This document shows, piece by piece, positions 5,172-20,746 of a stretch of DNA of 22,782 nucleotides; within the stretch, counting starts at the first letter, position 1; the number at the start of each line of letters is the position of its first letter. Origin of the DNA: Cudoniella acicularis (Eukaryota; Ascomycota; Leotiomycetes; Helotiales; Helotiaceae). The stretch spans positions 1 to 22,782 of the forward strand of contig JAAMPI010000934.1 of NCBI GenBank assembly GCA_013054445.1, read 5' to 3'. A program made the translations under genes and the position numbers. The notes under the pieces are model-generated. The model was not told the DNA's origin. It was given only the letters and a program-made list of their open reading frames with translations, and searched no databases.

Positions 5172-5235
5172 CGGTATATTTACCACTTTAGGCGGCTAGA
5201 TTTCGAGGTCTGAGGGATTTTGGACCAACAATAAA

Positions 5236-6972
5236 ATGATTGAATTCTATCCAGACCTGTTCGTTGCGGCCACCAACCGATTCCGCGACGCGGTGGGCGA
5301 TCTTCGAACCATTTTCAACCGCATTAACGAGGCCCTACGTAGCCGCCGAAACCGTGAACGGGAAATTGTTTGGAGACCTGCGAGAGTGCCGAATATTCGA
5401 GTCGAGTCCAACGACCCTGACGACCAGAGAGAAGTCCCAGCTGCTGCACAACGTCTCATCCGCTGGGCCCGCCAACACCCCAATCAGATCTTCAGAGCTG
5501 GCTTTGAGCCTCGCAACGATGGTGGAGAGTTCAACCTTGCTGCATATGTTGGGGGAGCAGTAGATTCACTGTTCGTATCTACGACTCGATGTTTCATGGA
5601 AGATGGATGCCTCATGAGATGGAGACCAGATACGACACATAGGGCAAGAGACGCACAGTATAGAAGTGAGAGGCGCTACGAGTACGAGATTTATGCACAC
5701 GGAGGCATCGACGTCAACCGCAGTCTCGGAGAAAACCATCAATTTCATGAGCAAAATGAAATTGCATTTCCTGGAGGGATCAGAAGGGAGTTAATTCGAT
5801 CGGTATTGGAATATGACGAGAATGGCGCTCCCATTCGCTATTGGATTAACGAGCATTTCGACTTGAATGTTCTTCCTCCAGAGAATCGAGTGCCTATAAG
5901 CGATCTACCAAACCATTTGTTTCCGGACTACGTTGAAGTTGTGTTCTGGAATGAGGCTAATCAGCAACCGCCTGGTGACCATGATCGCGAGCTTCGCAGC
6001 GCTGATGTTGACGAGCTTATGCGTTGGCCCGGCTCTGTGGAGCAGGTCACAGCTACGATGCTGACCTCGAAATCACTCACCCAGGATGATGTGCCCGTAG
6101 AGAGACACCAATATGCTATCAACATTTTCGGCACAGAAATGGTCCTCACTTGCGTCAATAGGACGGAACTCACTCTCGATATCTGGCAAGACAAACCGAC
6201 GCAGCATTTCCGATGTACTAACTATAAGGGCTATATTGGATTCCTCTGTGTTGGAGCGGCTGATGGCAATTCCCGGTATTTGGGGTTCGACAACTGGGAG
6301 AAGCTCGCCTGCAAAGCGCACCTGCAAAGAGACTATGAGCATATTCATCCCCGAGCTGACCCTGCTGGCGGCTTCTACCTCTTCATGCACAAAGACGACA
6401 AACTCGCACCTGTCTTACGGACTTCACGTACTGAACTGAAAATGATGGCGACCAGCACCACTAAATTCGGTTTTACTGCTCTCGATACGCCACGCAACTC
6501 CCGTGTTCATTGGGGTTTACCCGCTCCTTCTTCCGAGAGCCAGCGCCCAATTAATGGCGGCATCTATGTTATCCAGGTCCAAGGCACCACCAACAGGGTA
6601 TTCTCCGGTACCGGTAGCAACAAGAACATTCTGATGCTGGAAAACTATAATGGATCAGCCGCGCAGCACTTTCGTTGCACGCTCTATGATAATTGGATAG
6701 GATTTATCTGCGTGGGAGCTTATGGCGGCGAAGGCCGCTACATCAATCGTGATGGCTGGGATGTTATTTGCGAATCAAGGTATCAAAGGGAGAACGAACA
6801 CATTGATGTTAGACCTGAGCCAACGGGTGGTTTCACACTGTGGATGAAGCAAAATGACAGAGGTAATAGATATCTTGCCGCCATTGCCCGTGATGGATGG
6901 GGGCGGTTGGAGCTAACAGGCCAGCTAACCCGTGTTATTTTCAAGCCTGTCAGTGATATTCAGAATATGTAG
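5236..6972 (+). CDS. Pierisin/scabin-type ADP-ribosyltransferase with two C-terminal lectin-like repeats
   Basis: A single uninterrupted 578-residue frame. Residues about 80-260 form an ADP-ribosyltransferase domain of the R-S-E class: Arg87 in IFRAGF, the S-T-T strand at 115-117 and QNE at 173-175, with YEIYAHGGIDV (150-160) between. Q-x-E instead of E-x-E is what DNA-guanine-modifying pierisin and scabin, and the C3-type enzymes, carry, so arginine is not the expected target. Residues about 292-416 and 443-571 are two copies of a roughly 125-residue module sharing QHFRCT, IGF-CVGA, GRY, EHI and GGF; they look beta-trefoil/lectin-like, as in pierisin, which also follows its catalytic part with lectin repeats. 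No signal peptide and no introns are seen, while neighbouring genes have several. A role as a cytotoxic or defence protein is inferred, and the target is unknown. The gene looks intact. Confidence 0.8.
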   Translation: MIEFYPDLFVAATNRFRDAVGDLRTIFNRINEALRSRRNREREIVWRPARVPNIRVESNDPDDQREVPAAAQRLIRWARQHPNQIFRAGFEPRNDGGEFNLAAYVGGAVDSLFVSTTRCFMEDGCLMRWRPDTTHRARDAQYRSERRYEYEIYAHGGIDVNRSLGENHQFHEQNEIAFPGGIRRELIRSVLEYDENGAPIRYWINEHFDLNVLPPENRVPISDLPNHLFPDYVEVVFWNEANQQPPGDHDRELRSADVDELMRWPGSVEQVTATMLTSKSLTQDDVPVERHQYAINIFGTEMVLTCVNRTELTLDIWQDKPTQHFRCTNYKGYIGFLCVGAADGNSRYLGFDNWEKLACKAHLQRDYEHIHPRADPAGGFYLFMHKDDKLAPVLRTSRTELKMMATSTTKFGFTALDTPRNSRVHWGLPAPSSESQRPINGGIYVIQVQGTTNRVFSGTGSNKNILMLENYNGSAAQHFRCTLYDNWIGFICVGAYGGEGRYINRDGWDVICESRYQRENEHIDVRPEPTGGFTLWMKQNDRGNRYLAAIARDGWGRLELTGQLTRVIFKPVSDIQNM

Positions 6973-7825: not shown

Positions 7826-9336
7826 CTACGTCTTCAATACCACTTCAATCACCCCCTCCTCATCATCACTGAAAGGATTTTTCCAAATTTTCACAAGTTC
7901 CAATCCAACCAACGACACAAGATCAACCCATTGCTTTTCTGTCCGTTTTATGCCGGCTAAACACGACATCATATTGAGATCTCCCGCAGCAAAGAAAGCA
8001 GGGCAGTCTCTTTCTGGTAGTACAGACTCATTCAGAAGGATTTTCGAGTATCCTGGCTTCATGGCGGGCATTAAGTTGCGGAGGATTTCCCGGCATTTTT
8101 TGTCAGAGAAATCATGCAAGAGGAAGTGTGTGTAGTAAACACGAGCGCCTGTTATTTTTGTCAAATCTCGTAGAACAAATTATGCTTCTAATCATTTGAA
8201 ATGGGTATTTCTTACTCTTCACAGGCTGCTCTGTATAAATATCGTGAGACATAGCATGAATACCCTCACTCAGACCCACAACATTTTCTATTGTCTTCGG
8301 CAGGTCTTGAAGTACAAGATGCCCCTTCGCCTCCGGGAACTTACCCAAGAACTTCTCTAGATCGTGTCCATAAGCACCACCCATATCAACCAGTAAGACC
8401 TCATCCTGTGCACCGCCAAAACTGGACAATATCTCGTCTACGACAGGGAACCAGTCAATCCAATGCTTTCTCGTAACGCGAATTCCAGACATATATACAC
8501 TGAAATCATGAAGCTTCTCTAGATCGGCTTGCGTCATTTCGAAATAGGACATCTCGGTGTTCAAAGCCCATTGGAAAGGACCGTGGGACCCATCTGTGGG
8601 GACTTTGTAGCCGAATTTGCGGAAGTATTCGGGCATGTGCATTTGGACAATTGTTGTTCTGTCGTGACTGAAAACGCGTTTTCTATTAGTAGAGGAATAA
8701 ATACCGAGGTTATAGTAAGCTCACCAAACCTTTAAGGCTGCCTCTAGTGGGTGTTTTGCCATGGCTCGAGTCAAATCCGTGGCAAGGTATAATTGCTCAT
8801 CGGCTTCCTTTGCGAATCCTATGGAGCAGAGCACTCGCATCAAACGAACTTCGAAAAACATATCAGCTCTGATTGCGTCTCGTGCTTTGTACCAGAAATA
8901 TACCAATAAGAAGCACCTCGGCATTTGAACTTTCTGCAAGTTCCTGAGCAGAGAGAGGTTCGGCATCACTTTCAGCTAGCATGCGGAACAATCGCAAGTC
9001 AATTCCCACTCGAAGAGCCATTCGCTGGGGTCCAAACTATATGTATCATTAGCTGGAAGTTGCCAACTTGGTTGCGTTGATGCGGATTCTCACCTCCCAG
9101 GCGTATCTCATCACAGTCTCTTCTGGCTTCTCCAGGGATTTAACTATATTTTTTGCCATTCCAAGCGCCGATTTTCTTGTTTCATCGTCAAAATTTCCCA
9201 CCTCTGCTTCAATTACTCGTGAAACATGTTGAAGGTGTTGCGCTGGCGACAACTCAACACTAGACGCGTTGGGTGCAGAATTATCAGAAGACATTAGGAC
9301 TAGCGAGTTTGCGGTCGAGAATTCCAAAGACTGCAA
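7826..9336 (-). CDS. SAM-dependent O-methyltransferase (fungal COMT type), five exons
   Basis: Exons on the minus strand are 9336-9094, 9036-8904, 8848-8725, 8667-8216 and 8148-7826. The four introns are 57, 55, 57 and 67 nt, all GT-AG with compatible phases, giving 424 residues. Branch-like sites GCTAATG, GCTGATA and ACTAAT are visible. Motif I is VDMGGAYGHD (about 260-269), followed by VLQDLP. The catalytic stretch is FLLHDFSDKKCREIL, with His329 the likely base, and MKPGYSKILLNE follows. N-terminal helices hold the winged-helix dimerisation part (QRMALRVGIDLRLFRML and later LATDLTRAM). For the last intron, acceptor AACAG was preferred to CGAG because it gives QPVKSARVYY, the family pattern. 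The enzyme would methylate a hydroxyl on a small aromatic or polyketide-like molecule. It lies in line with the exporter and the regulator. A start at 9294 (Met15) is also possible. Confidence 0.87.
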
Positions 9337-9832
9337 CTGTAGGAAGAATTCTTGGAGATGTAGAACTCAAAAGGCCCAGTGTTGGGGTTTCTCCGACAGT
9401 TGGCTTCAGTGACAAATCAGTCTTTGAATACCGAGTATGACTGCTGACTGCATAGAATCAAAGTCAAAAACTGCCGGTCCTAGGGATGATATCCACATCT
9501 AACACAGAAAGTGACGTGATGTTGCCAATTTTACGTAAACATCGAGGTGACGCACAGCGGAACCTCTTGTCCTAAGTTTTTTGCTACAGACATCTATATA
9601 ATCCCTGTTCTAGCCACACAGCGCTTGAGAACATCCCTTAGAGTACAAGTAAAAGTCCGAACTACGGATCCTAATATACCTAGTCATCTAATGTTGTATG
9701 ATGGAAGGAGAGAATACAAAGTATTTTAAGATGACTTTTATAAATAATAAACCATATTCTTTTAATCAATTACACATATAGCTTATTCAAAATTTCCGCC
9801 TTATTAGTACATTCTTCGTAACTTGAGCACAC
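9337..9832. other. Intergenic between methyltransferase 5' end and transporter 3' end
   Basis: The promoter of the methyltransferase should lie in the first few hundred bases. The last 100 bp are AT-rich and form the 3' flank of the transporter; part of this flank is also found in the eroded copy near 7365. No coding content is seen. Confidence 0.4.
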
Positions 9833-11564
9833 TCAAGAATGACCATCTTCTGGTTTTCTTTCACTCTTAACGGCTTCCTCTGCGTCTTCAGGCGAGCCCC
9901 TCTTCATATCTTTGATGTTCTTCCACTCGATGCTGAGAGATCCGATAACAGAAAGACTTGCTACACATGTCGCAAGGACAAAAGTTCTCGTCAATGCATG
10001 GTTGTACACCACAAGAAGGGCATTCAAGTACTGTGGAGCCACGGAGGTCTGCAAATCCGTAGCACCCGTATTCAGAACCGCCTGTGCATCCAAACCAGGG
10101 ATGCGAATAAATCCAGATGCCAAGGAACTGATAAACACGTTTTGAGCAGCGGGGACAAAACCCACACCGCCGAGCCCCTGGGCAAAGAATATCGCAGCTG
10201 TACCGATCGCAACATCGGACCTTGGGAGAACAACTTGCACAGCTAAGCCCGCTACCTGTCGTGAGGAGCCTATTCCAAGACCGCAAAGCACTTGAAATCC
10301 TATCCAACTTGCATGGTTCGTTTCCAGATTAAAGGTTGTCATGAAGCCGGTAGCAACTGATGTGGCAACGGAAGCGAAGATCATGGATGGCACGTAGTAC
10401 CCAATCTTCGACGTGACGAAACCAGATAGTGTGCTCGCTACAGAGAGTGAAATGATAAATGGGATGAGTCTAATACCTGACTCTATCGCGGTTATCCCCT
10501 TGATAGCCTGGAACCAGATAGCCAGGTAAAAGAGTATGACTGTCATAGCTCCAACAGTCGTAAACGTGAAGATAGCTGCGGCCACAATACTTCGGTGCAT
10601 GGCGATCCGAAGTGGAACCAGTGCGTCCTCCTTCTCCCAGGCCTGGATTCCAAGGAAAACTATAAAACCAACGACGAAGATAATTAGAAGGGCCATGACT
10701 CGGGCACTTTTCCAAGGATGCGTGGTACCTCCCCATTGAAGTGCTAGTATGAGACAAACGATGCTCGGTAAGAAGAAAGCCGTCCCTAGTGGATCGAGTC
10801 GGAGGAGTTGCTGTTGAAGTGAAAGACCTCTCACTTTACTCTTCCCAGCATCCGGTATTTTGAGGATGAAAGAAATGATTACGATTGATGCAGCACCGAT
10901 TGGTAAGTTGATATAGAAGCACCATCTCCAGGATAACCTATCTGTAAGGACCCCACCAAGGAGAGGAGCGACGACTAAGGCTATTCCGAAGGTGGCTCCA
11001 AACAAACCCATGTAGATAGGACGTCGATTGAGCGGGACGCTGTGCAGCAGAGTCATCTGACTTCCTGAGAAGATGCCGGCGGTTCCCATGCCAGCTATGG
11101 ATCTTCCAATGATAAACGCGAGTGAGGTTGGTGCAGAACCGCATACTGCAGACTCAACTTCAAATATTCCAACGCAGCCGACGAAGACCCATTTCGTAGA
11201 GTAAAATTTATAAATTCTGCCATAGAGCAATTGGAGGGCACAATTCGTGAGCATGTAGGAACTTGCATACCAGCCGACGTCGTCCAGAACGCGAAATTCG
11301 TTGGCAATGTGGGGTATGACTGTGGCTATTATGGTTCGGTCCTAACATTTCTTAGCAAAGGATTCCCTCGAGGAGAGGGTCAACGGTTAAACTAACCAGT
11401 GCACACAAGAAAAGTGCCAGCCAGATGGAGAATATAATCAGTGCGAGAGGCATTCCTTCAGGGAATTGCGTCGGTTCTTGGTTATGTGCGGGTAGCTTTT
11501 CAGGGCTTTTCTCTCCATCATTATGCGCTGCTCCCCCGCTTGTCTGTAGCTTCTGTGGCTTCAT
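9833..11564 (-). CDS. MFS drug/toxin exporter, DHA2 (14-TMS) family, two exons
   Basis: Exons are 11564-11397 and 11341-9833 (minus), with a 55-nt intron (GTTAGT...GTTAG, branch-like GCTAAG). With this start the product is 558 residues, normal for the family. ALDRTIIATVIPHIANEF crosses the splice junction and is the family's first signature. LGGVLTDRLSWRWCFYINLP is the motif of the fifth membrane helix of 14-helix antiporters. Many hydrophobic segments follow, then a charged tail ending PEDGHS. Such proteins export secondary metabolites or xenobiotics across the plasma membrane by proton antiport. The true start may be further upstream: the frame stays open through 11634, and residues before Met at 11564 (SSGGADHDNEKKGSEE) repeat those after it (TSGGAAHNDGEKSPEK), so this part is probably coding. 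It then runs into undetermined bases. Confidence 0.88.
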
Positions 11565-11634
11565 GGTCTCTTCAGAACCCTTCTTTTCGTTGTCATGATC
11601 GGCTCCCCCACTCGACTGCGATGTCTGTGGGCCC

Positions 11635-11660
11635 NTTTNNNCNNTTTTTTTAAAAAAAAA
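11635..11660. other. Undetermined bases next to T/A homopolymers
   Basis: Ns occur at 11635, 11639-11641 and 11643-11644, followed by T and A runs. This looks like a low-quality or joined spot in the assembly. It falls where the N-terminal coding part of the transporter should continue, so the 5' end of that gene cannot be fixed. Confidence 0.85.
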
Positions 11661-12443
11661 GATCCTTTCTCTCGTGATAACAGGGGATTCAAGGTGAATC
11701 TTTTGAATTTTGAGGTGAAATTACGAAAACCTGTGAAAATCTGACTTGTATATGAAATGCACGCATTCATCATGTTAGAAGCTATTTACATAATGGGAAT
11801 GTATGTACTATATAACGTATGTTACAACGACCGCTCATTTAACTCCTAGAAATATCGGTGTAGTTGAAAGAATCGGCGGGTAAAGCTCAAGATTCTACTA
11901 CAATCGCCGGTTTAATCAGGCCTTCCAATGTTCGCAGCCGTTCGCTTCGCCCTCGACAAGATCTCCGGGCTTCACTTTCGCATATCGAGTTCTCTTAGTC
12001 ATGTCCCACTTCCGGTTTCTTGGCTATTAAGTCCATTGGGCGTTCCTTTTCCTTATTTACGGCCTTTGAAGAGAGCATTTTATTTATTTTTGAGAAGATT
12101 TTTGCGTGAAAATTCAGACATAGGTGAAAGTTGTTCTCTGTCGCTCAAATATTCATAGCTGTAATTTTTATAAACAAGGAAAAGAGTGGAATGGGATATG
12201 AAAAATGATAGCCATTTGAATATTTCGGGGAGATCTTCCATGATAGAAAATAACATCTCATTTTCATCCGTGCTCTTTTGGCATTTCTGTGGTGTATGTG
12301 ATTGCCATTTTGAGTTCCTCCGTCTTGCGCAGCCATGACCAAACGAATACTCTGCAGTAGGGACATCTGTGGGTTCCTCCAACGTCAGTATGTCTCCGAG
12401 ATACAGACTCCACTTTCCTAAATAAACAAAAATCTTGCGTAAT
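11661..12443. other. Intergenic between transporter and regulator
   Basis: No protein content is recognised. The 3' part is the downstream flank of the regulator gene, and the 5' part should hold the transporter promoter. Open frames at 11928-12158 (plus) and 12080-12544 (minus) are low-complexity or overlap the regulator end in another frame. Confidence 0.4.
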
Positions 12444-14748
12444 TCAACGACGCATGGCCATTTCTTGGTTCCGGTCCATGTCATTCTCGGTACCACTTCC
12501 CGGCAACAAAGTATTCCAATAATCCCACATGGCGAGTTCATCATTTACAGGGATAACCTGCTGATAAGAGCTTTCCATGATGTCCATTGGCGTAGGTAAT
12601 AGAGCTCCAGGTGGAGTCAAATTTGTCATTCCACCAGTGTATGTAGATGTGGAGCCCAAGTTGATAGCTTGATTGCTAGTACACGCTGGTGTGTTGCCGT
12701 TGATTAAGTTTGATGCTGCGCCTCCGTTAAAGAGCATATTATGCTGCCCCTTAATTCTCACCAACTTTTCTCTCATCATGGCAATTAGAGGTGGAGTGTT
12801 AAGCGAGAGGTCGTTTTTCAATGCTGCTTCCCGGGCCTCCCAAGCTTTTACCGACAAACTCTCAAATGATAATTTAATAACACTGTCGCCAGGCTCAAAG
12901 GGACTTGATCTTGGTCGGTCAAAGGCATTTGTTACGGTGGTCACAGCTTCCCAAGCTCGGTCTGCCAGTTTTCCGGTCGGTCTATACCTGAGATTGGAGA
13001 GGAGAATGACATATGCCAGAAACGGAGTGCTAGCAGTCAGAAACCATCTAAAGCGCACCAAAGAGGGTTCTGCAGCACATTCGGTGTAAGCCTCGATAGC
13101 TTCCAGACAGACATGCATAAGGTTTTCTTGGTTTTCCCCGCCCATTTGTGGTCCATACGCTGCTATCCTCATTTTCGAAATTGAGTATTTGACATAATAC
13201 CGAGCGAGGATATGAAGGGGGTTTTCAGGGCCGCAATAGCTGAGATACTTGGTTTGGAGGCGCTGCTCGAAATCATTAATGCTTCCTAGTTTATCTGCCA
13301 AAGGAACTGATGGATTGCTGAATTCACCCCATCTAATGTCTATTGCCCTCGTAGCCCGGATTTGACGCAAAAATTCCGCAATTTCACACCGAATGAGACA
13401 AAATGTCATGTCTGTTGCCCGTTTGTATCTTTGCGGTAATATGCCCATTTCGGAACTTAAGTCGCTCTCATTGACGTTGAGTGGAAGCTCTGTATTCCAA
13501 GCGAAGCTGAGGATAGTAGTTCCTACAGCAGACATCTCTGCAGCGCGACCATCGAGTAAAATAATTTGCCACCACAAACGCTTTTGGAGTTCTCTTTCGA
13601 ATGCCGAAAGCCCATAATCTTGAACGTTTCGATGTAGGCCATTTCTCTTTGCAATACGTTCCGCAATAGCAGTCAAACTTAAAAATGTCAGGGGATCAGT
13701 TGTCTTCATGATCGAAACCTTCCAGACGTTAAATTATGGCCATAAATAATTTATCCTCCTAGAGAATTGATCATTCAGATAGGGGGATAACACTTACCAA
13801 GTGAAGTACAAATGCTTGTAGCACCACCAAATCCGAAGTTCGAAGGAAACCAGCTTTCTGAAGAGCATATTGTGAAGCCTTCGTGTATCGACTCACGAGT
13901 GTCAGGCTGTCTGCATTCAGTGCCGCCAGACAGGCATTATCTCTCATAGACAGTAAAGCATTCGAATAAATGGAGAATAAAAGTGCGTGCACTGCTGGTG
14001 AAGCTCCTAATAAGTTAGAGGTGCTCCTCAATATTTGCTGTTGAACGGTCGGGGCGTGCAGTGTTCTCAAAATCGGCTGAACATTGTCAAGGAAAGCTTG
14101 CCACAACGTAAATATCTGGACTGGTTTTGGGTGAAGGCTAGCTAGGTCAACAGATCCAGCCAAATTGAATAGTATCGTACTGCTGTCTGTTTCACAGGCA
14201 TCGCCGTAGGTTGTAATAATTGGACTCTGTTCTGATTTTTCACCTGATTCTCCTTTAAGGATCTTTTCCATTTCTCCTAACTATGTGGATTCTCAATAAA
14301 TTTTTCAATGCTGGGAAGAGGATATATCCCTTACCTTATTCTTGACACCGGACTCATGGGTCTCATGCGTCAACTCCCGGGTTAGAAGGAGAAGGGTTTC
14401 TTCTTCTGTAGAAGTCGAATTAGCTCCTTTGCTGGGGATTGTTCCTAAACTCGAAGAGCTATGAATGTCGTTTATGCTCTCCAAATTGGCACCATAGCTT
14501 TTCAACGCATCCTCGTAACGTTTTAGCCGTGCGAGAAGCTCGGCTTCTGGAAATCTCTTTTTTCGTGGCCGGGTCGCCGCTGAAGCCGCAGGAACGCAGG
14601 GAACATGATGTTTCGCACAGTAAGTGCACGGATTTTTCTTGTCACATCGGACTTTTCGTCGGTGGCACAATGCACAAGAGTACTGCTCCAAGGATTTGGA
14701 CAGGGTTTCGGTGCTTAAAAATCCTGGTCCGGACGCGGCTTCTTTCAT
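12444..14748 (-). CDS. Zn2Cys6 fungal transcription factor, three exons
   Basis: Exons are 14748-14335, 14280-13798 and 13718-12444 (minus), with introns of 54 nt (GTAAGG...ATAG) and 79 nt (GTAAGT...GAAG). Phases are all zero, giving 723 residues. Residues 25-51 are a perfect C-x2-C-x6-C-x5-C-x2-C-x6-C cluster (CALCHRRKVRC and CTYCAKHHVPC), followed by a basic linker (RPRKKR) and a short helical, coiled-coil-like dimerisation stretch (AELLARLKRYEDAL). The middle domain has ELQKRLWWQIILLDGRAAEM, the hallmark of the fungal-specific transcription factor domain. The C-terminal 100 residues are Asn/Thr/Gly/Pro-rich, as in activation regions. The frame is open upstream to an ATG at 14958, but the residues there look non-conserved, so Met at 14748 is preferred. 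It is co-linear with the exporter and methyltransferase and is probably their pathway regulator (inference). Confidence 0.87.
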
Positions 14749-16057
14749 AGTGGGCAGATCAAAGACGGGATATACGGTCTGTCTTGGGAGAATAGAAAGC
14801 CTTTCCGGACTTTTGAAACCGGCCGATAGTGCAAGAAAATTCCTCGGGCTCACAACGTGGCCTGCCGCGTTGGTCTGATATATTTGCAACGAGCGATGAA
14901 GCAAAGGGACCTCGTAGACGAAGGAATTTAAACTGTGGTTGAATGTCTTCGTCAGCATCCAATAGCAATAGAACCCGAGCCGAGAAGTCGGCGTCGGACT
15001 ATTTCTATGCTCGGAGTTATCGGGTTAAAGTACTTTCCTCTCAAGTATACAGGGATGCGGGGATTTAAATGGACCACTATTATTTACTTGCCTCTTAATA
15101 AAAGTATAATAATTCTTTTAATTTACTGTCTTTGTATATTTATTTTCATATTTTTTTTATCTGTAAATGTATTAATTTTTTTTTTAAATCCATTTTTTAA
15201 CTAAATATATATGAGGCAGACAGTATATAGCGACCCCCCGCTCCCTTCTTTCAATCTATCTCTCTTCTGTCGTAGTTCTCAATTAGAGCACTAAATAAAC
15301 CTGCGAACGCAGTATATTTATAAAAAGTAACAAATGGCTTGTTCTACCTATTATAAAATATACATAGTGATTTTATAGTACAGCGTATAGAGTAAGGGAT
15401 AACAAAAGCCAATATTCGGGTACTGATGCGTAGCGTGTAATAATGTAGAGCGCTCCTTATACAGAGGATACACTCTATATTTTAGTGAGAGGTGCGCTAT
15501 AATTATAGCGTCCGAAGGAAAGGTTTAGTAATTAGAAGCCTATAATTTTACGATTTCTCCCTATCTAAACGCCTTTTAGTATAGTTTTATGATTTTTATT
15601 ATCTAATAACTTACTTTACTCTAAAAATAACTCTGTGTAACACTGTTCTTAGTTTTCTTTTTATAATATACTTTAATAATAAAATGTTTTAACAGACTGT
15701 GAAGTCGATGGTTAGGCGTTGATTGGGTGCAGCGCGCTAAGGGACGGGGCACCGAAAAGGGAAGAGTGAGATGGCCGGTCTACTACGCGCTATAAGCAAA
15801 TATATTATTAAGTATATTATTAAATTAAAAGCATATTAAAGTTTAATTTAAAGAACAATAGGTTTTTTAAATCTTTCTTAATAAATCTTTAAATAATATT
15901 TGTCTCGTGGTATCTACACCTTCTATCCTTTACCGTTCCTGGAGGAAGCATTAGAATAAGGGGGCATGCTAGAATCCAATAAATTACGGTCGCTGATGCT
16001 AGGGGGGAGGAGGTGGAGAAGGGAGTTTCCCGCCATTTCATTTGTAGCTTCGCCTCT
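14749..16057. other. Long AT-rich intergenic stretch
   Basis: The first 250-300 bp are the likely promoter of the regulator. From about 15090 to 15700 and from 15790 to 15900 the sequence is AT-rich with long T and A runs. A GC-richer island at about 15690-15795 breaks it up. A 16-bp palindrome lies at 15495-15510. No protein remnant could be read on either strand. It may be an old, eroded repeat, but no terminal repeats or target-site duplications were found by eye. Confidence 0.4.
15495..15510. repeat. Perfect 16-bp palindrome
   Basis: CGCTATAATTATAGCG is its own reverse complement. It lies in AT-rich DNA with no nearby gene. It may be chance, a protein-binding site or part of a worn inverted repeat. 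Confidence 0.75.
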
Positions 16058-18692: not shown

Positions 18693-20411
18693 CTTGAGTG
18701 CGACTAGTACAGATTCTTTTCTAGAGTCTGACAAAGGGTTTGAGATATAAGGAGGAATAACCTGATGTGGATCTTTGGGGGGGGGTATCTGGATAGATAT
18801 ATACCGCTGCCATTCTTTACTGAACACTGCTCCTCAACCTCAGTTGACCGTTTTTTCCACAACGGACACGCCGACATGTCATGCTGCTCTCGTGCGTCCA
18901 GTTGCACCTTTTTTGAACACTAGGACTGAGACTGGTGTTGATTGATCTTAAACACTGCCCAAAAGCAAAACGTAAACTTCACTTCTCAAGCGCAATCACG
19001 GCGCAAACAAAGTGAAGTAGCTCTCACTCGAGGTAAAAAGCTGCTCAAGCTTAGTGAACTTTAATGGAATATACTAACCTTCAATGAAATTCGCGATACA
19101 GAAAAAGGCAGAAGGCGTGGCAGATATGAAAAGGAAGGTTTGTTTTTCAGAGATGCTTTTGAAATAAGTTCATCCCCCAACATCTGATTCATTGATTGTA
19201 GAACGCTGGTCTCAGATCTAGGCGACGGCCTATCTCGATGGTGCAATAATTACATCCAGCTGAACGAAGAATGTCTTGAGGCTGAGCTGCGCGAAGCGGA
19301 GGCTGAAATTTGTGATCGTAGAACCTGAAGTTCGTTTCAAATTCCATGATGCTCATATTCACATGTTTATCGGGCGATGAGATGAGAGAACTAAAAGATG
19401 AGGAACACTGACAGGACCGTTAAGCATGCAAGGCATCGTGTCTCTCCCAAGAGAATGCGGAATAAAAATAAAAATTGTGGATCGTTTGAAGAAGGTTGAT
19501 ATTACGTAGCGTGCGGCCTCCGAGGAAAAGAAGAAGAGAAGAGACAAAGGGAGAAGCGAAAATATGTCGCAAAAGCGGTCTGTGCAGGCTCGCGTAGGTG
19601 CCAGCACTCTTCTCCTTTTCAGCATTCTGATATATTCACCATTGAAAGCATACTTGCGGCGAGATGTAAGTATATCTCAGAATGAGCCATTGGAAACTCC
19701 CATGCTCAAAGGTACGCCTTTACTGCGAAGCCTGTCAGGCCCTAATGCTCAAGTGTACTCCCGTTCTCAAAGGTTCAGCCTATAACCCAAAAAAAAGGAT
19801 GGGGGCAAAAGAATTACAAATATATACTGGAATGCAGGGTAGCTTAATGGATGGAAGGAGGAGTGCAAATTTTATTAGGTATACGAATATGGATTAACAA
19901 TTTACTTGATTGAGAGTATAGGCACACCCCATAATAACCCTCTCCCTTCCCCCCCCCCTTTTCCCCTTTCGGTGAAAAAAATGCCTTCATAATAGCAACT
20001 GATGGTTTCAGCTCCGGCCTAAAAATTTAATCAGAGGATGTAGGAATAGCTTATAGAAAGCATGATTAGTGAAACAGAACAAGAATAATGTCAGCAACTT
20101 GCTGCTAAGAAAAGTGTTGTATGAGAGGTTAAGTTTTCATTCGTCCTTTCTGTTCGATCATTAAAGAATTTCCTAAGTTGAATAAAAATAGGACACGGTT
20201 TATCTAATTTAAACCTCCGTAAAGCATCAAAATCCGCGTATTAAACCCTGCCCAGTCAGAGACTATTGTAGAGAGAAACGTCGTCTGAATACTTACCATA
20301 AACTTCGTACTTACAGCTTATCAAGACGCCCTCCACAAGTCATTGGTATGGACCGGATGGAATAAACTTAATAAAGCAAAACAAGCAAAGCTTATCAACA
20401 AATTAAGCAAA
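18693..20411. other. Long region without a recognised gene
   Basis: The first 250 bp are the promoter side of the secreted-protein gene. From about 19250 to 19310 a short plus-strand frame reads ECLEAELREAEAEICDRRT, but it has stops on both sides. Purine-rich sequence lies around 19500-19560, a long C run near 19945-19970 and A runs near 19790. Small imperfect copies of a CTCAAAGGT word lie at about 19705-19775. The last 50 bp before 20412 are A-rich and include CAACAAA, which resembles the leader of fungal tRNA genes. Confidence 0.4.
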
Positions 20412-20418
20412 GTCTTCG

Positions 20419-20470
20419 GTAAGTGCAACCTAACTCCTCAACTTTTCAACGTGGACTAACATTGCAACAG
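20419..20470 (+). other. tRNA intron 1 (52 nt), spliceosomal type
   Basis: Begins GTAAGTG, ends CAACAG, with GGACTAAC (branch A at 20459) 11 nt before the end. It separates tRNA position 7 from 8. All three signals match those of the protein-gene introns in this window. Confidence 0.8.
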
Positions 20471-20494
20471 TGGCTCAGTTAGTTAGAGCGTTGG

Positions 20495-20580
20495 GTAAGC
20501 CCACTACTTGTTCAATATTTAATTCTTCAACTAACAGCCATTTTGTCTCATATCCTGCATATGACATGACTGTAATACAG
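20495..20580 (+). other. tRNA intron 2 (86 nt), spliceosomal type
   Basis: Begins GTAAGC, ends ATACAG. CATGAC (A at 20569) lies 11 nt before the end; a second CTAACAG at about 20531-20537 could be an alternative branch or acceptor. It interrupts the anticodon stem between positions 30 and 31. The T brought in as position 31 leaves a T-T mismatch with 39. Confidence 0.75.
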
Positions 20581-20596
20581 TCTGGTAATCCAAAGG

Positions 20597-20648
20597 GTAA
20601 GTTCCGATTAAAAATTGTCTTTGTGAAAAATACTGATGATTGTGACAG
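20597..20648 (+). other. tRNA intron 3 (52 nt), spliceosomal type
   Basis: Begins GTAAGTT, ends TGACAG, with ACTGATG (A at 20636) 12 nt before the end. It lies in the variable loop between positions 46 and 47 and has the same length as intron 1. Confidence 0.8.
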
Positions 20649-20663
20649 TCGTGAGTTCGAGTC

Positions 20664-20716
20664 GTAAGTATAAAAAAGCAAGCGGAATTAGGAGTTTCGG
20701 CTAATGATAAATAAAG
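20664..20716 (+). other. tRNA intron 4 (53 nt), spliceosomal type
   Basis: Begins GTAAGTA, ends AAAG, with GGCTAATG (A at 20704) 12 nt before the end. It splits the 3' side of the T stem directly after box B; joining C at 20663 to TCAC at 20717 restores a perfect CTCAC strand. Confidence 0.8.
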
Positions 20717-20739
20717 TCACCGAGGACAATAAATCCCCC

Positions 20740-20746
20740 TTTTTTT
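20740..20746 (+). terminator. Pol III-type T7 terminator
   Basis: Seven T residues after a short C run, 12 bases beyond the discriminator base of the split tRNA. This is where RNA polymerase III stops on fungal tRNA genes and suggests Pol III transcription despite the intron structure. Confidence 0.65.

What the first reader, a model, noticed from the sequence alone, without database searches (positions are those of the whole stretch)
20412..20728. A complete tRNA split into five pieces by four spliceosomal-type introns
Seen: removing four segments (52, 86, 52 and 53 nt), each beginning GTAAG, ending AG and with a branch-like A 11-12 nt before the end, leaves a 74-nt tRNA. Its acceptor (7/7), D (4/4) and T (5/5) stems all pair, and three of these pairings depend on joining blocks far apart in the DNA. 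A T7 terminator follows. Known: nuclear tRNA introns are single, lie at 37/38 and are cut by the TSEN endonuclease; multiple tRNA introns occur in archaea and some algae but use bulge-helix-bulge sites. I know of no nuclear tRNA gene with several GT-AG introns. Inference: this is either a Pol III transcript processed by the spliceosome, a Pol II-made spliced tRNA-like RNA, or a tRNA gene colonised by mobile introns (introners).
Basis: partly seen in the sequence, partly recalled or inferred. Interest (0 to 1): 0.97.

Follow-up and report, generated by a model that had tools for sequence, protein, structure and literature searches.

The report
tRNA genes cut by mRNA-type introns
In a fungus of likely helotialean kinship, 25 of 51 scored nuclear tRNA genes, among them this gene for a tRNA that carries methionine, are interrupted by short introns with the signals of messenger-RNA introns, so the cell would need its spliceosome to make part of its tRNA set, a role that the passages I saw in print describe only for other RNAs.

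Summary
So four 51-53-nt mRNA-type introns plus one canonical tRNA intron. Intron 2 ends in TG, not AG, and the D loop has lost G18: this copy may be decaying. In the same genome 25 of 51 scored nuclear tRNA genes carry 31 such introns (47-61 nt). In five isotypes interrupted and uninterrupted paralogs have identical mature sequence. For 15 introns paralogs fix the boundaries without assuming GT-AG; 14 come out GT..AG (0.12 expected). The introns lack the bulge-helix-bulge pairing enriched in 37/38 introns, and are not copies of one another. Upstream elements and T-runs look like Pol III genes. Best reading: Pol III transcription, then spliceosomal removal. RNA evidence, a second species and a complete gene census are lacking.

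The parts
20370..20376 (+). AATAAAG upstream element, 42 nt before tRNA nt 1; like the AATAAG element before many tRNA genes of this genome
   Evidence: AATAAG in 15 of 24 GT-intron genes and 15 of 26 others, shuffled mean 0.96; the window itself has AATAAAG
20412..20418 (+). exon 1, tRNA nt 1-7 (5' acceptor strand)
   Evidence: identical in paralogs C949 (L102) and C1314 (L090)
20419..20470 (+). GT-AG intron 1, 52 nt, site 7|8, CTAAC branch-like site
   Evidence: same site interrupted in C949, uninterrupted in C1314
20471..20494 (+). exon 2, tRNA nt 8-30 (D arm with A in place of G18)
20495..20545 (+). GT intron 2, 51 nt, site 30|31, CTAAC branch-like A 11 nt before the end; 3' end is TG, not AG
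   Evidence: site uninterrupted in both paralogs
20546..20552 (+). exon 3, TCTCATA, nt 31-37 with anticodon CAT
   Evidence: contiguous with the exon-2 sequence in C949 and C1314
20553..20587 (+). canonical tRNA intron, 35 nt, site 37|38, holding TATGA complementary to TCATA
   Evidence: 37/38 introns of 35 and 34 nt, also with TATGA, in C949 and C1314
20588..20596 (+). exon 4, ATCCAAAGG, nt 38-46
20597..20648 (+). GT-AG intron 3, 52 nt, site 46|47, CTGAT branch-like site
   Evidence: same site interrupted in C1314, uninterrupted in C949
20649..20663 (+). exon 5, nt 47-61 (T arm 5' strand and loop; most of the B box)
20664..20716 (+). GT-AG intron 4, 53 nt, site 61|62, CTAAT branch-like site
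   Evidence: same site interrupted in C949, uninterrupted in C1314
20717..20728 (+). exon 6, nt 62-73 (T stem and acceptor 3' strands, discriminator A)
20740..20746 (+). T7 run, Pol III terminator-like
   Evidence: a T5 or longer lies within 70 nt after 25 of 25 such genes

Best explanation
The window holds an elongator tRNA-Met(CAT) gene cut by four 51-53-nt introns with mRNA-type signals and by one ordinary 35-nt 37/38 intron; it is likely transcribed by RNA polymerase III, the four are predicted to be removed by the spliceosome and the fifth by the tRNA splicing endonuclease. Shown by sequence: the same kind of intron interrupts 25 of 51 scored nuclear tRNA genes at sites spread over the cloverleaf, and in five isotypes the joined exons are identical to an uninterrupted paralog. 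Inferred: Pol III makes the whole precursor; U1, U2 and the rest of the spliceosome take out the GT-AG pieces first, because introns in the acceptor, D and T stems would block folding and end processing by RNase P and tRNase Z; TSEN then cuts at 37/38. The window copy may be working poorly: its intron 2 ends in TG and its D loop has lost G18.
For: Curated table: 25 genes, 31 introns, 47-61 nt; 5' ends GTAAGT 15, GTAAGC 6, other GTN forms 10; 3' ends TAG 18, CAG 10, AAG 2, TTG 1; a CTRAY or TTAAC site in 30 of 31, its A 9-13 nt from the end in all 30. Uninterrupted paralogs with identical mature sequence: Arg-ACG L011 = L041 = L042 (0 of 72 differ), Ile-AAT L013 = L085 = L088 (0 of 74), Ala-TGC L012 = L052 (0 of 72), His-GTG L050 = L072 (0 of 71), Asp-GTC L059 = L067 = L077 (0 of 72). 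Boundaries fixed by paralogs alone: 14 of 15 introns allow GT..AG among 30 possible placements, 0.12 expected. ARAGORN names the right tRNA after removal of the GT introns in 22 of 25, against the right anticodon in 4 of 25 raw. Shuffle null: 0 of 1000 reach 49. mRNA introns of the same genome: 7 of 10 proposed in actin-family genes have a CTRAY whose A lies 10-13 nt from the end, lengths 50-95 nt. Pol III features: a T5 or longer within 70 nt after 25 of 25; AATAAG upstream as often as in genes without such introns. Not BHB: 4-bp helix in 2 of 31 GT introns (re-paired mean 3.6) against 18 of 40 canonical introns (mean 11.4; 3 of 500 re-pairings reach it). All three elongator-Met genes found are interrupted.
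Against: No RNA data: splicing, lariats and Pol III occupancy are untested. The window copy has a TG 3' end and G18A and its mature form does not fold into a cloverleaf at minimum energy, so this copy itself may be a pseudogene. The finder's cut-off is not free of false hits on real sequence: L071, one of the tRNA-like genes with a ~100-nt insert, scored 49.2 with an 81-nt 'intron'. Lack of T5 in the 31 introns is not significant (1.0-1.8 expected). The two U6 snRNA hits over the cut-off (of 8 listed) run full length with no sign of an intron, so not every Pol III gene is invaded. Two of three actin intron 5' ends moved when the donor filter was loosened, and 3 of 10 proposed mRNA introns lack the expected branch spacing. 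The census is incomplete and biased to genes with an intact T arm or a covariance-model hit; the DNA search for elongator-Met found only C949 and missed the window and C1314 copies. No second species could be examined.
Confidence: 0.86

Rival explanations
1. The extra introns are BHB-type introns cut by the tRNA splicing endonuclease, as in archaea and Cyanidioschyzon merolae.
For: Several nuclear tRNA introns at odd positions are known in C. merolae (PMC9602550 and PMC3978253, passages seen). With loose register 19 of 31 GT introns reach at least 3 of 4 pairs.
Against: A full 4-bp helix is no commoner than after random re-pairing in the 31 GT introns (2 seen, 3.6 expected) but is enriched in 40 canonical introns of this genome's tRNA genes (18 against 11.4). 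0 of 40 canonical introns are GT..AG, and 8 of 40 have a CTRAY-type site.
Confidence: 0.03
2. One reading: intron 2 is 86 nt and the product is a tRNA with anticodon GGT on a Met-like body.
For: It gives AG at the 3' end; my finder scores it 52.5 against 49.5; ARAGORN calls Thr(ggt); its minimum-energy fold keeps acceptor, D and T stems. If the TG end is not used, the CAG at 20580 could be used in the cell.
Against: Paralogs C949 and C1314 have TTGGTCTCATA unbroken and 35- and 34-nt 37/38 introns; the window keeps TCTCATA and TATGA in the matching places; the nearest branch-like site lies 46 nt from the CAG against 9-13 nt in 30 of 31 introns.
Confidence: 0.08
3. The interrupted copies are dead: insertions into tRNA genes that are never spliced.
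For: Uninterrupted copies exist for five isotypes; the window copy has two suspicious changes.
Against: Exons are identical in the Lys (L030/L031), Arg, Ile and Ser pairs, and 1 of 74 differs in elongator-Met, while introns at the same sites have diverged to about shuffle level except in the Ser pair; all 3 elongator-Met and all 3 Lys-CTT genes found are interrupted; branch spacing is tight.
Confidence: 0.05
4. The loci are Pol II units that make spliced tRNA-like RNAs.
For: The spliceosome usually works on Pol II transcripts.
Against: A T5 or longer within 70 nt after 25 of 25 genes and an upstream AATAAG element as in genes without such introns. Precedents for other polymerases: yeast removes lichen spliceosomal introns from Pol I transcripts (PMC8527467, passages) and fission-yeast U6, a Pol III RNA, has an mRNA-type intron (PMC10484740, passages and abstract).
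Confidence: 0.04
5. Mobile introners have recently copied themselves into tRNA genes.
For: Many introns of one size class at scattered sites.
Against: All-against-all comparison of the 31 introns: only the paralogous Ser-GCT pair stands out (score 17); the next scores are 11 and below, against a shuffle maximum of 13. The rest of the genome's introns were not compared.
Confidence: 0.03

Closest known systems
Ectopic spliceosomal introns in lichen-fungus rDNA (PMC8527467, passages seen, which cites Bhattacharya et al. 2000)
   Same: mRNA-type introns in a structural RNA not made by Pol II; yeast removes them from Pol I transcripts
   Different: rRNA, not tRNA; there they coexist with group I introns, here with 37/38 tRNA introns; this fungus looks helotialean rather than a lichen former
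mRNA-type intron of fission-yeast U6 snRNA (PMC10484740, passages seen, which cites Tani and Ohshima 1989)
   Same: spliceosomal intron in a Pol III transcript
   Different: [quoted passage not shown] here many tRNA genes and scattered sites, while the two best U6 hits show none
Multiple-intron tRNA genes of Cyanidioschyzon merolae and archaea (PMC9602550, PMC3978253, PMC8450103, passages seen)
   Same: several introns per tRNA, in D, anticodon and T arms
   Different: BHB structure and endonuclease; here GT-AG, CTRAY branch-like sites and no BHB enrichment
Ordinary nuclear tRNA introns at 37/38 (TSEN substrates)
   Same: present in many of the same genes; in the three elongator-Met genes with an intron segment complementary to the anticodon region
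   Different: one per gene, at 37/38, 0 of 40 examined here GT..AG

Membership tests
Spliceosomal (U2-type) introns | GT 5' end with U1-like consensus and AG 3' end | tested here: met
   31 of 31 GT, 30 of 31 AG (GT and AG were assumed for 16 of them); 14 of 15 by paralogs alone; window intron 2 ends in TG
Spliceosomal (U2-type) introns | branch site close to the 3' end | tested here: met
   CTRAY or TTAAC in 30 of 31, A 9-13 nt from the end; the finder required a looser branch-like motif, so this is partly built in for the 20 genes it chose
Spliceosomal (U2-type) introns | likeness to mRNA introns of the same genome | tested here: met
   7 of 10 introns proposed in actin-family genes have the same branch motif and spacing; small sample, two 5' ends uncertain
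Spliceosomal (U2-type) introns | lariat intermediate and spliceosome dependence | not testable with these tools
   no RNA data
Nuclear tRNA gene | cloverleaf with invariant residues after intron removal | tested here: met
   ARAGORN: 22 of 25 right isotype after GT-intron removal; window Met(cat) once the 37/38 intron is also out; the window copy lacks G18 and its minimum-energy fold is not a cloverleaf
Nuclear tRNA gene | Pol III terminator and promoter elements | tested here: met
   T-run after 25 of 25; shared upstream element; occupancy untested
BHB / TSEN introns (for the GT-AG set) | bulge-helix-bulge pairing at the junctions | tested here: not met
   2 of 31 with a 4-bp helix against 3.6 expected; positive control 18 of 40 against 11.4
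Introners | near-identical copies in many genes | tested here: not met
   no similarity beyond chance among the 31 except one paralogous pair; the rest of the genome was not compared
Group I or II introns | catalytic core of a few hundred nt | tested here: not met
   lengths 47-61 nt; Rfam lists nothing in the window at gathering scores

The most novel reading that the evidence does not exclude
In this fungus spliceosomal introns have invaded the nuclear tRNA genes as a class: about half of the tRNA genes, including every elongator-Met and every Lys-CTT gene found, can yield tRNA only through the spliceosome, and several pass through two splicing machines in turn (spliceosome, then TSEN), so translation depends directly on the splicing apparatus.
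Probability: 0.75. Interest if true: 0.95.

Novelty: new variant of a known kind. Interest (0 to 1): 0.92.

Why it matters
[quoted passage not shown] A fungus in which half of the scored nuclear tRNA genes carry GT-AG introns would break both statements, show the spliceosome acting at large scale on Pol III RNA with an internal exon of 15 nt, and give a clean system for intron gain: interrupted and uninterrupted paralogs with identical exons sit in one genome. It also warns that tRNA finders can miss or misname such genes.

Tried and rejected
BHB, group I/II, introner and Pol II readings: see rivals. Lichen origin: my first guess from the rDNA precedent; the Arp4 search pointed to Helotiales instead. 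rDNA introns: the 18S search did not complete and the 5.8S search found nothing, so untested. The nad6 search for the taxon gave no organism names. mRNA introns from window ORF pairs were too uncertain to use. The 12 whole-genome searches went to tRNA (9), U6 (1), 5.8S (1) and actin (1). The TG-splice-site paper search failed on its wording and was not repeated.

Dropped from the census of 91 loci: 21 tRNA-like genes with a ~100-nt insert, two of which scored 49 or more (L048 53.2; L071 49.2 with an 81-nt 'intron'), and 19 others (chance T arms, truncated or unresolved, among them L010 and L043), all scoring 42.5 or less or nothing in my finder. Of the 25 genes, 20 have introns as chosen by the finder and 5 (L052, L072, L090, L092, window) were set by hand against paralogs or by eye; for these five the automatic call differed or failed. 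In L028 the finder did not resolve the 37/38 intron (mature length 88 against 73), so it was left out of the Lys exon comparison. The pattern search had 398 matches but listed only its first places, on contigs C1 to C611; the narrower patterns were run to cover the rest and miss T arms of other make-up.

Full report
What is in the window. Neither ARAGORN nor Rfam at gathering scores sees a tRNA in the unspliced window. The window is contig C1765 of a 53.2-Mb assembly in 1836 contigs. The host looks like a helotialean ascomycete: the closest named relatives of its Arp4 protein are from Tricladium varicosporioides (87%) and Mollisia (85 and 84%), which are Helotiales. This is a lead on lineage, not an identification.

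The gene is elongator tRNA-Met. A joined query found contig C949 with two exact stretches around a 35-nt gap, and a T-arm pattern found C1314. C949 reads GTCTTCG|51-nt GT-AG|TGGCTCAGTTGGTTAGAGCGTTGGTCTCATA|35-nt 37/38 intron|ATCCAAAGGTCGTGAGTTCGAGTC|47-nt GT-AG|TCACCGAGGACA. C1314 (L090) has a GT-AG intron in the D loop, a 34-nt 37/38 intron and a GT-AG intron at 46|47. The three mature sequences differ at one of 74 nt, G18 to A in the window. Window introns 1 and 4 share sites with C949, intron 3 shares its site with C1314, and intron 2 is found in the window copy only. Intron 2 has its branch-like A 11 nt from the end, as in the rest of the set, but ends in TG. This may be a rare 3' end, a mutation in a decaying copy, or an assembly error.

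Genome-wide. The tRNA covariance model, T-arm patterns and the joined query gave, with the window, 91 loci that I examined with a splice-aware finder and by eye. I count 51 as nuclear tRNA genes scoring at least 49: 26 without and 25 with GT introns; two tRNA-like genes with a ~100-nt insert that also reached 49 (L048, L071) are left out. The 25 genes are Lys-CTT x3, elongator-Met x3, Arg-ACG x2, Ile-AAT x2, Ser-GCT x2, and one each of Trp-CCA, Thr-CGT, Gln-TTG, Gln-CTG, Leu-CAA, Leu-TAG, Leu-AAG (two introns), Ala-TGC, His-GTG, Glu-CTC, Asp-GTC, Pro-TGG and Asn-GTT. Sites run from 6|7 through the D arm, 26|27, 27|28, 30|31, 31|32, the variable loop, 61|62 and 64|65 to 67|68. The search is not complete, so 'all copies' always means all copies found.

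Tests. Shuffles that keep the T arm never reach 49 (0 of 1000, maximum 47). In five isotypes the interrupted and the uninterrupted paralogs have identical mature sequence. For 15 introns the boundaries follow from a paralog that lacks the intron at that site; 14 of 15 allow GT..AG, with 0.12 expected over 30 possible placements. Branch-like sites are present in 30 of 31, with the A 9-13 nt from the end. Exons stay the same while introns at shared sites have drifted: identities are 0.53-0.68 against shuffle 95% points of 0.59-0.66, only Lys L030/L031 and Arg L041/L042 lying slightly above their own 95% point, and the Ser-GCT pair reaches 0.82. The full BHB helix is not enriched in the GT set and is enriched in canonical introns. 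ARAGORN after removal of the GT introns names 22 of 25 correctly. It fails on L073 (anticodon not resolved), L090 and the window, the last being cured by removing the 37/38 intron as well. On raw sequence it names the right anticodon in 4 of 25, something else in 9 and nothing in 12.

Transcription. A T5 or longer lies within 70 nt after 25 of 25 genes, and after 26 of 26 genes without GT introns. AATAAG lies upstream in 15 of 24 and 15 of 26, shuffled mean 0.96 in each (L090 was left out for lack of flank). No GT intron holds T5, but only 1.0-1.8 were expected, so this is not evidence. The two U6 hits over the cut-off run full length without an intron.

Mechanism, shown and inferred. Shown: gene anatomy, paralog identity, splice signals and lack of BHB enrichment. 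Inferred: Pol III transcription, spliceosomal removal before TSEN, and function of the products. Precedents seen in print: spliceosomal introns in lichen rDNA, removed by yeast from Pol I transcripts (PMC8527467, passages), and the mRNA-type intron of fission-yeast U6 (PMC10484740, passages). Searches for spliceosomal introns in nuclear tRNA genes showed no report in their listings; I looked at listings and starts of abstracts, and at passages of seven papers, not at whole texts, and some listings were cut (20 of 25, 10 of 46). The library holds open-licence papers only, so this does not prove absence from print. [quoted passage not shown] merolae is an exception of the BHB kind (PMC9602550 and PMC3978253, passages).

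Weak points. There is no RNA. There is one genome only. The window's own copy is the least healthy of the three elongator-Met genes. The mRNA-intron comparison rests on 10 introns proposed in actin-family genes, of which 7 fit.

Noticed in passing
L024, L027, L033, L040, L048, L051, L053-L057, L060, L062, L064, L065, L070, L071, L076, L078, L079, L100: About 21 tRNA-like genes with acceptor, D and T arms but a conserved, structured ~100-nt insert in place of the anticodon loop (shared TTGAGGGGTTCACCCTCT hairpin in most), many with T-runs and upstream motifs like the tRNA genes; no consistent anticodon. 19 of the 21 aligned. Possibly an undescribed Pol III RNA family.
   Followed up: partly
window 5200-6972 (+): Intact open frame with a pierisin-like ADP-ribosyltransferase domain (PF22596), 47% identical to a Trichoderma protein.
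   Followed up: partly
window 7826-15024 (-): Neighbouring frames look like an O-methyltransferase, an MFS transporter and a Zn2Cys6 regulator, perhaps a secondary-metabolite cluster (labels recalled from motifs, no domain search made).
   Followed up: no
L092 and L094 (contigs C83, C1060): Two Ser-GCT genes share a GT intron at the same D-loop site with 82% intron identity, a duplication young enough to date intron drift.
   Followed up: partly
L010 (contig C124): A 59-bit tRNA hit (TGC loop) without any intron that my finder does not accept and that looks unlike the other nuclear tRNAs; it may be organellar or foreign.
   Followed up: no
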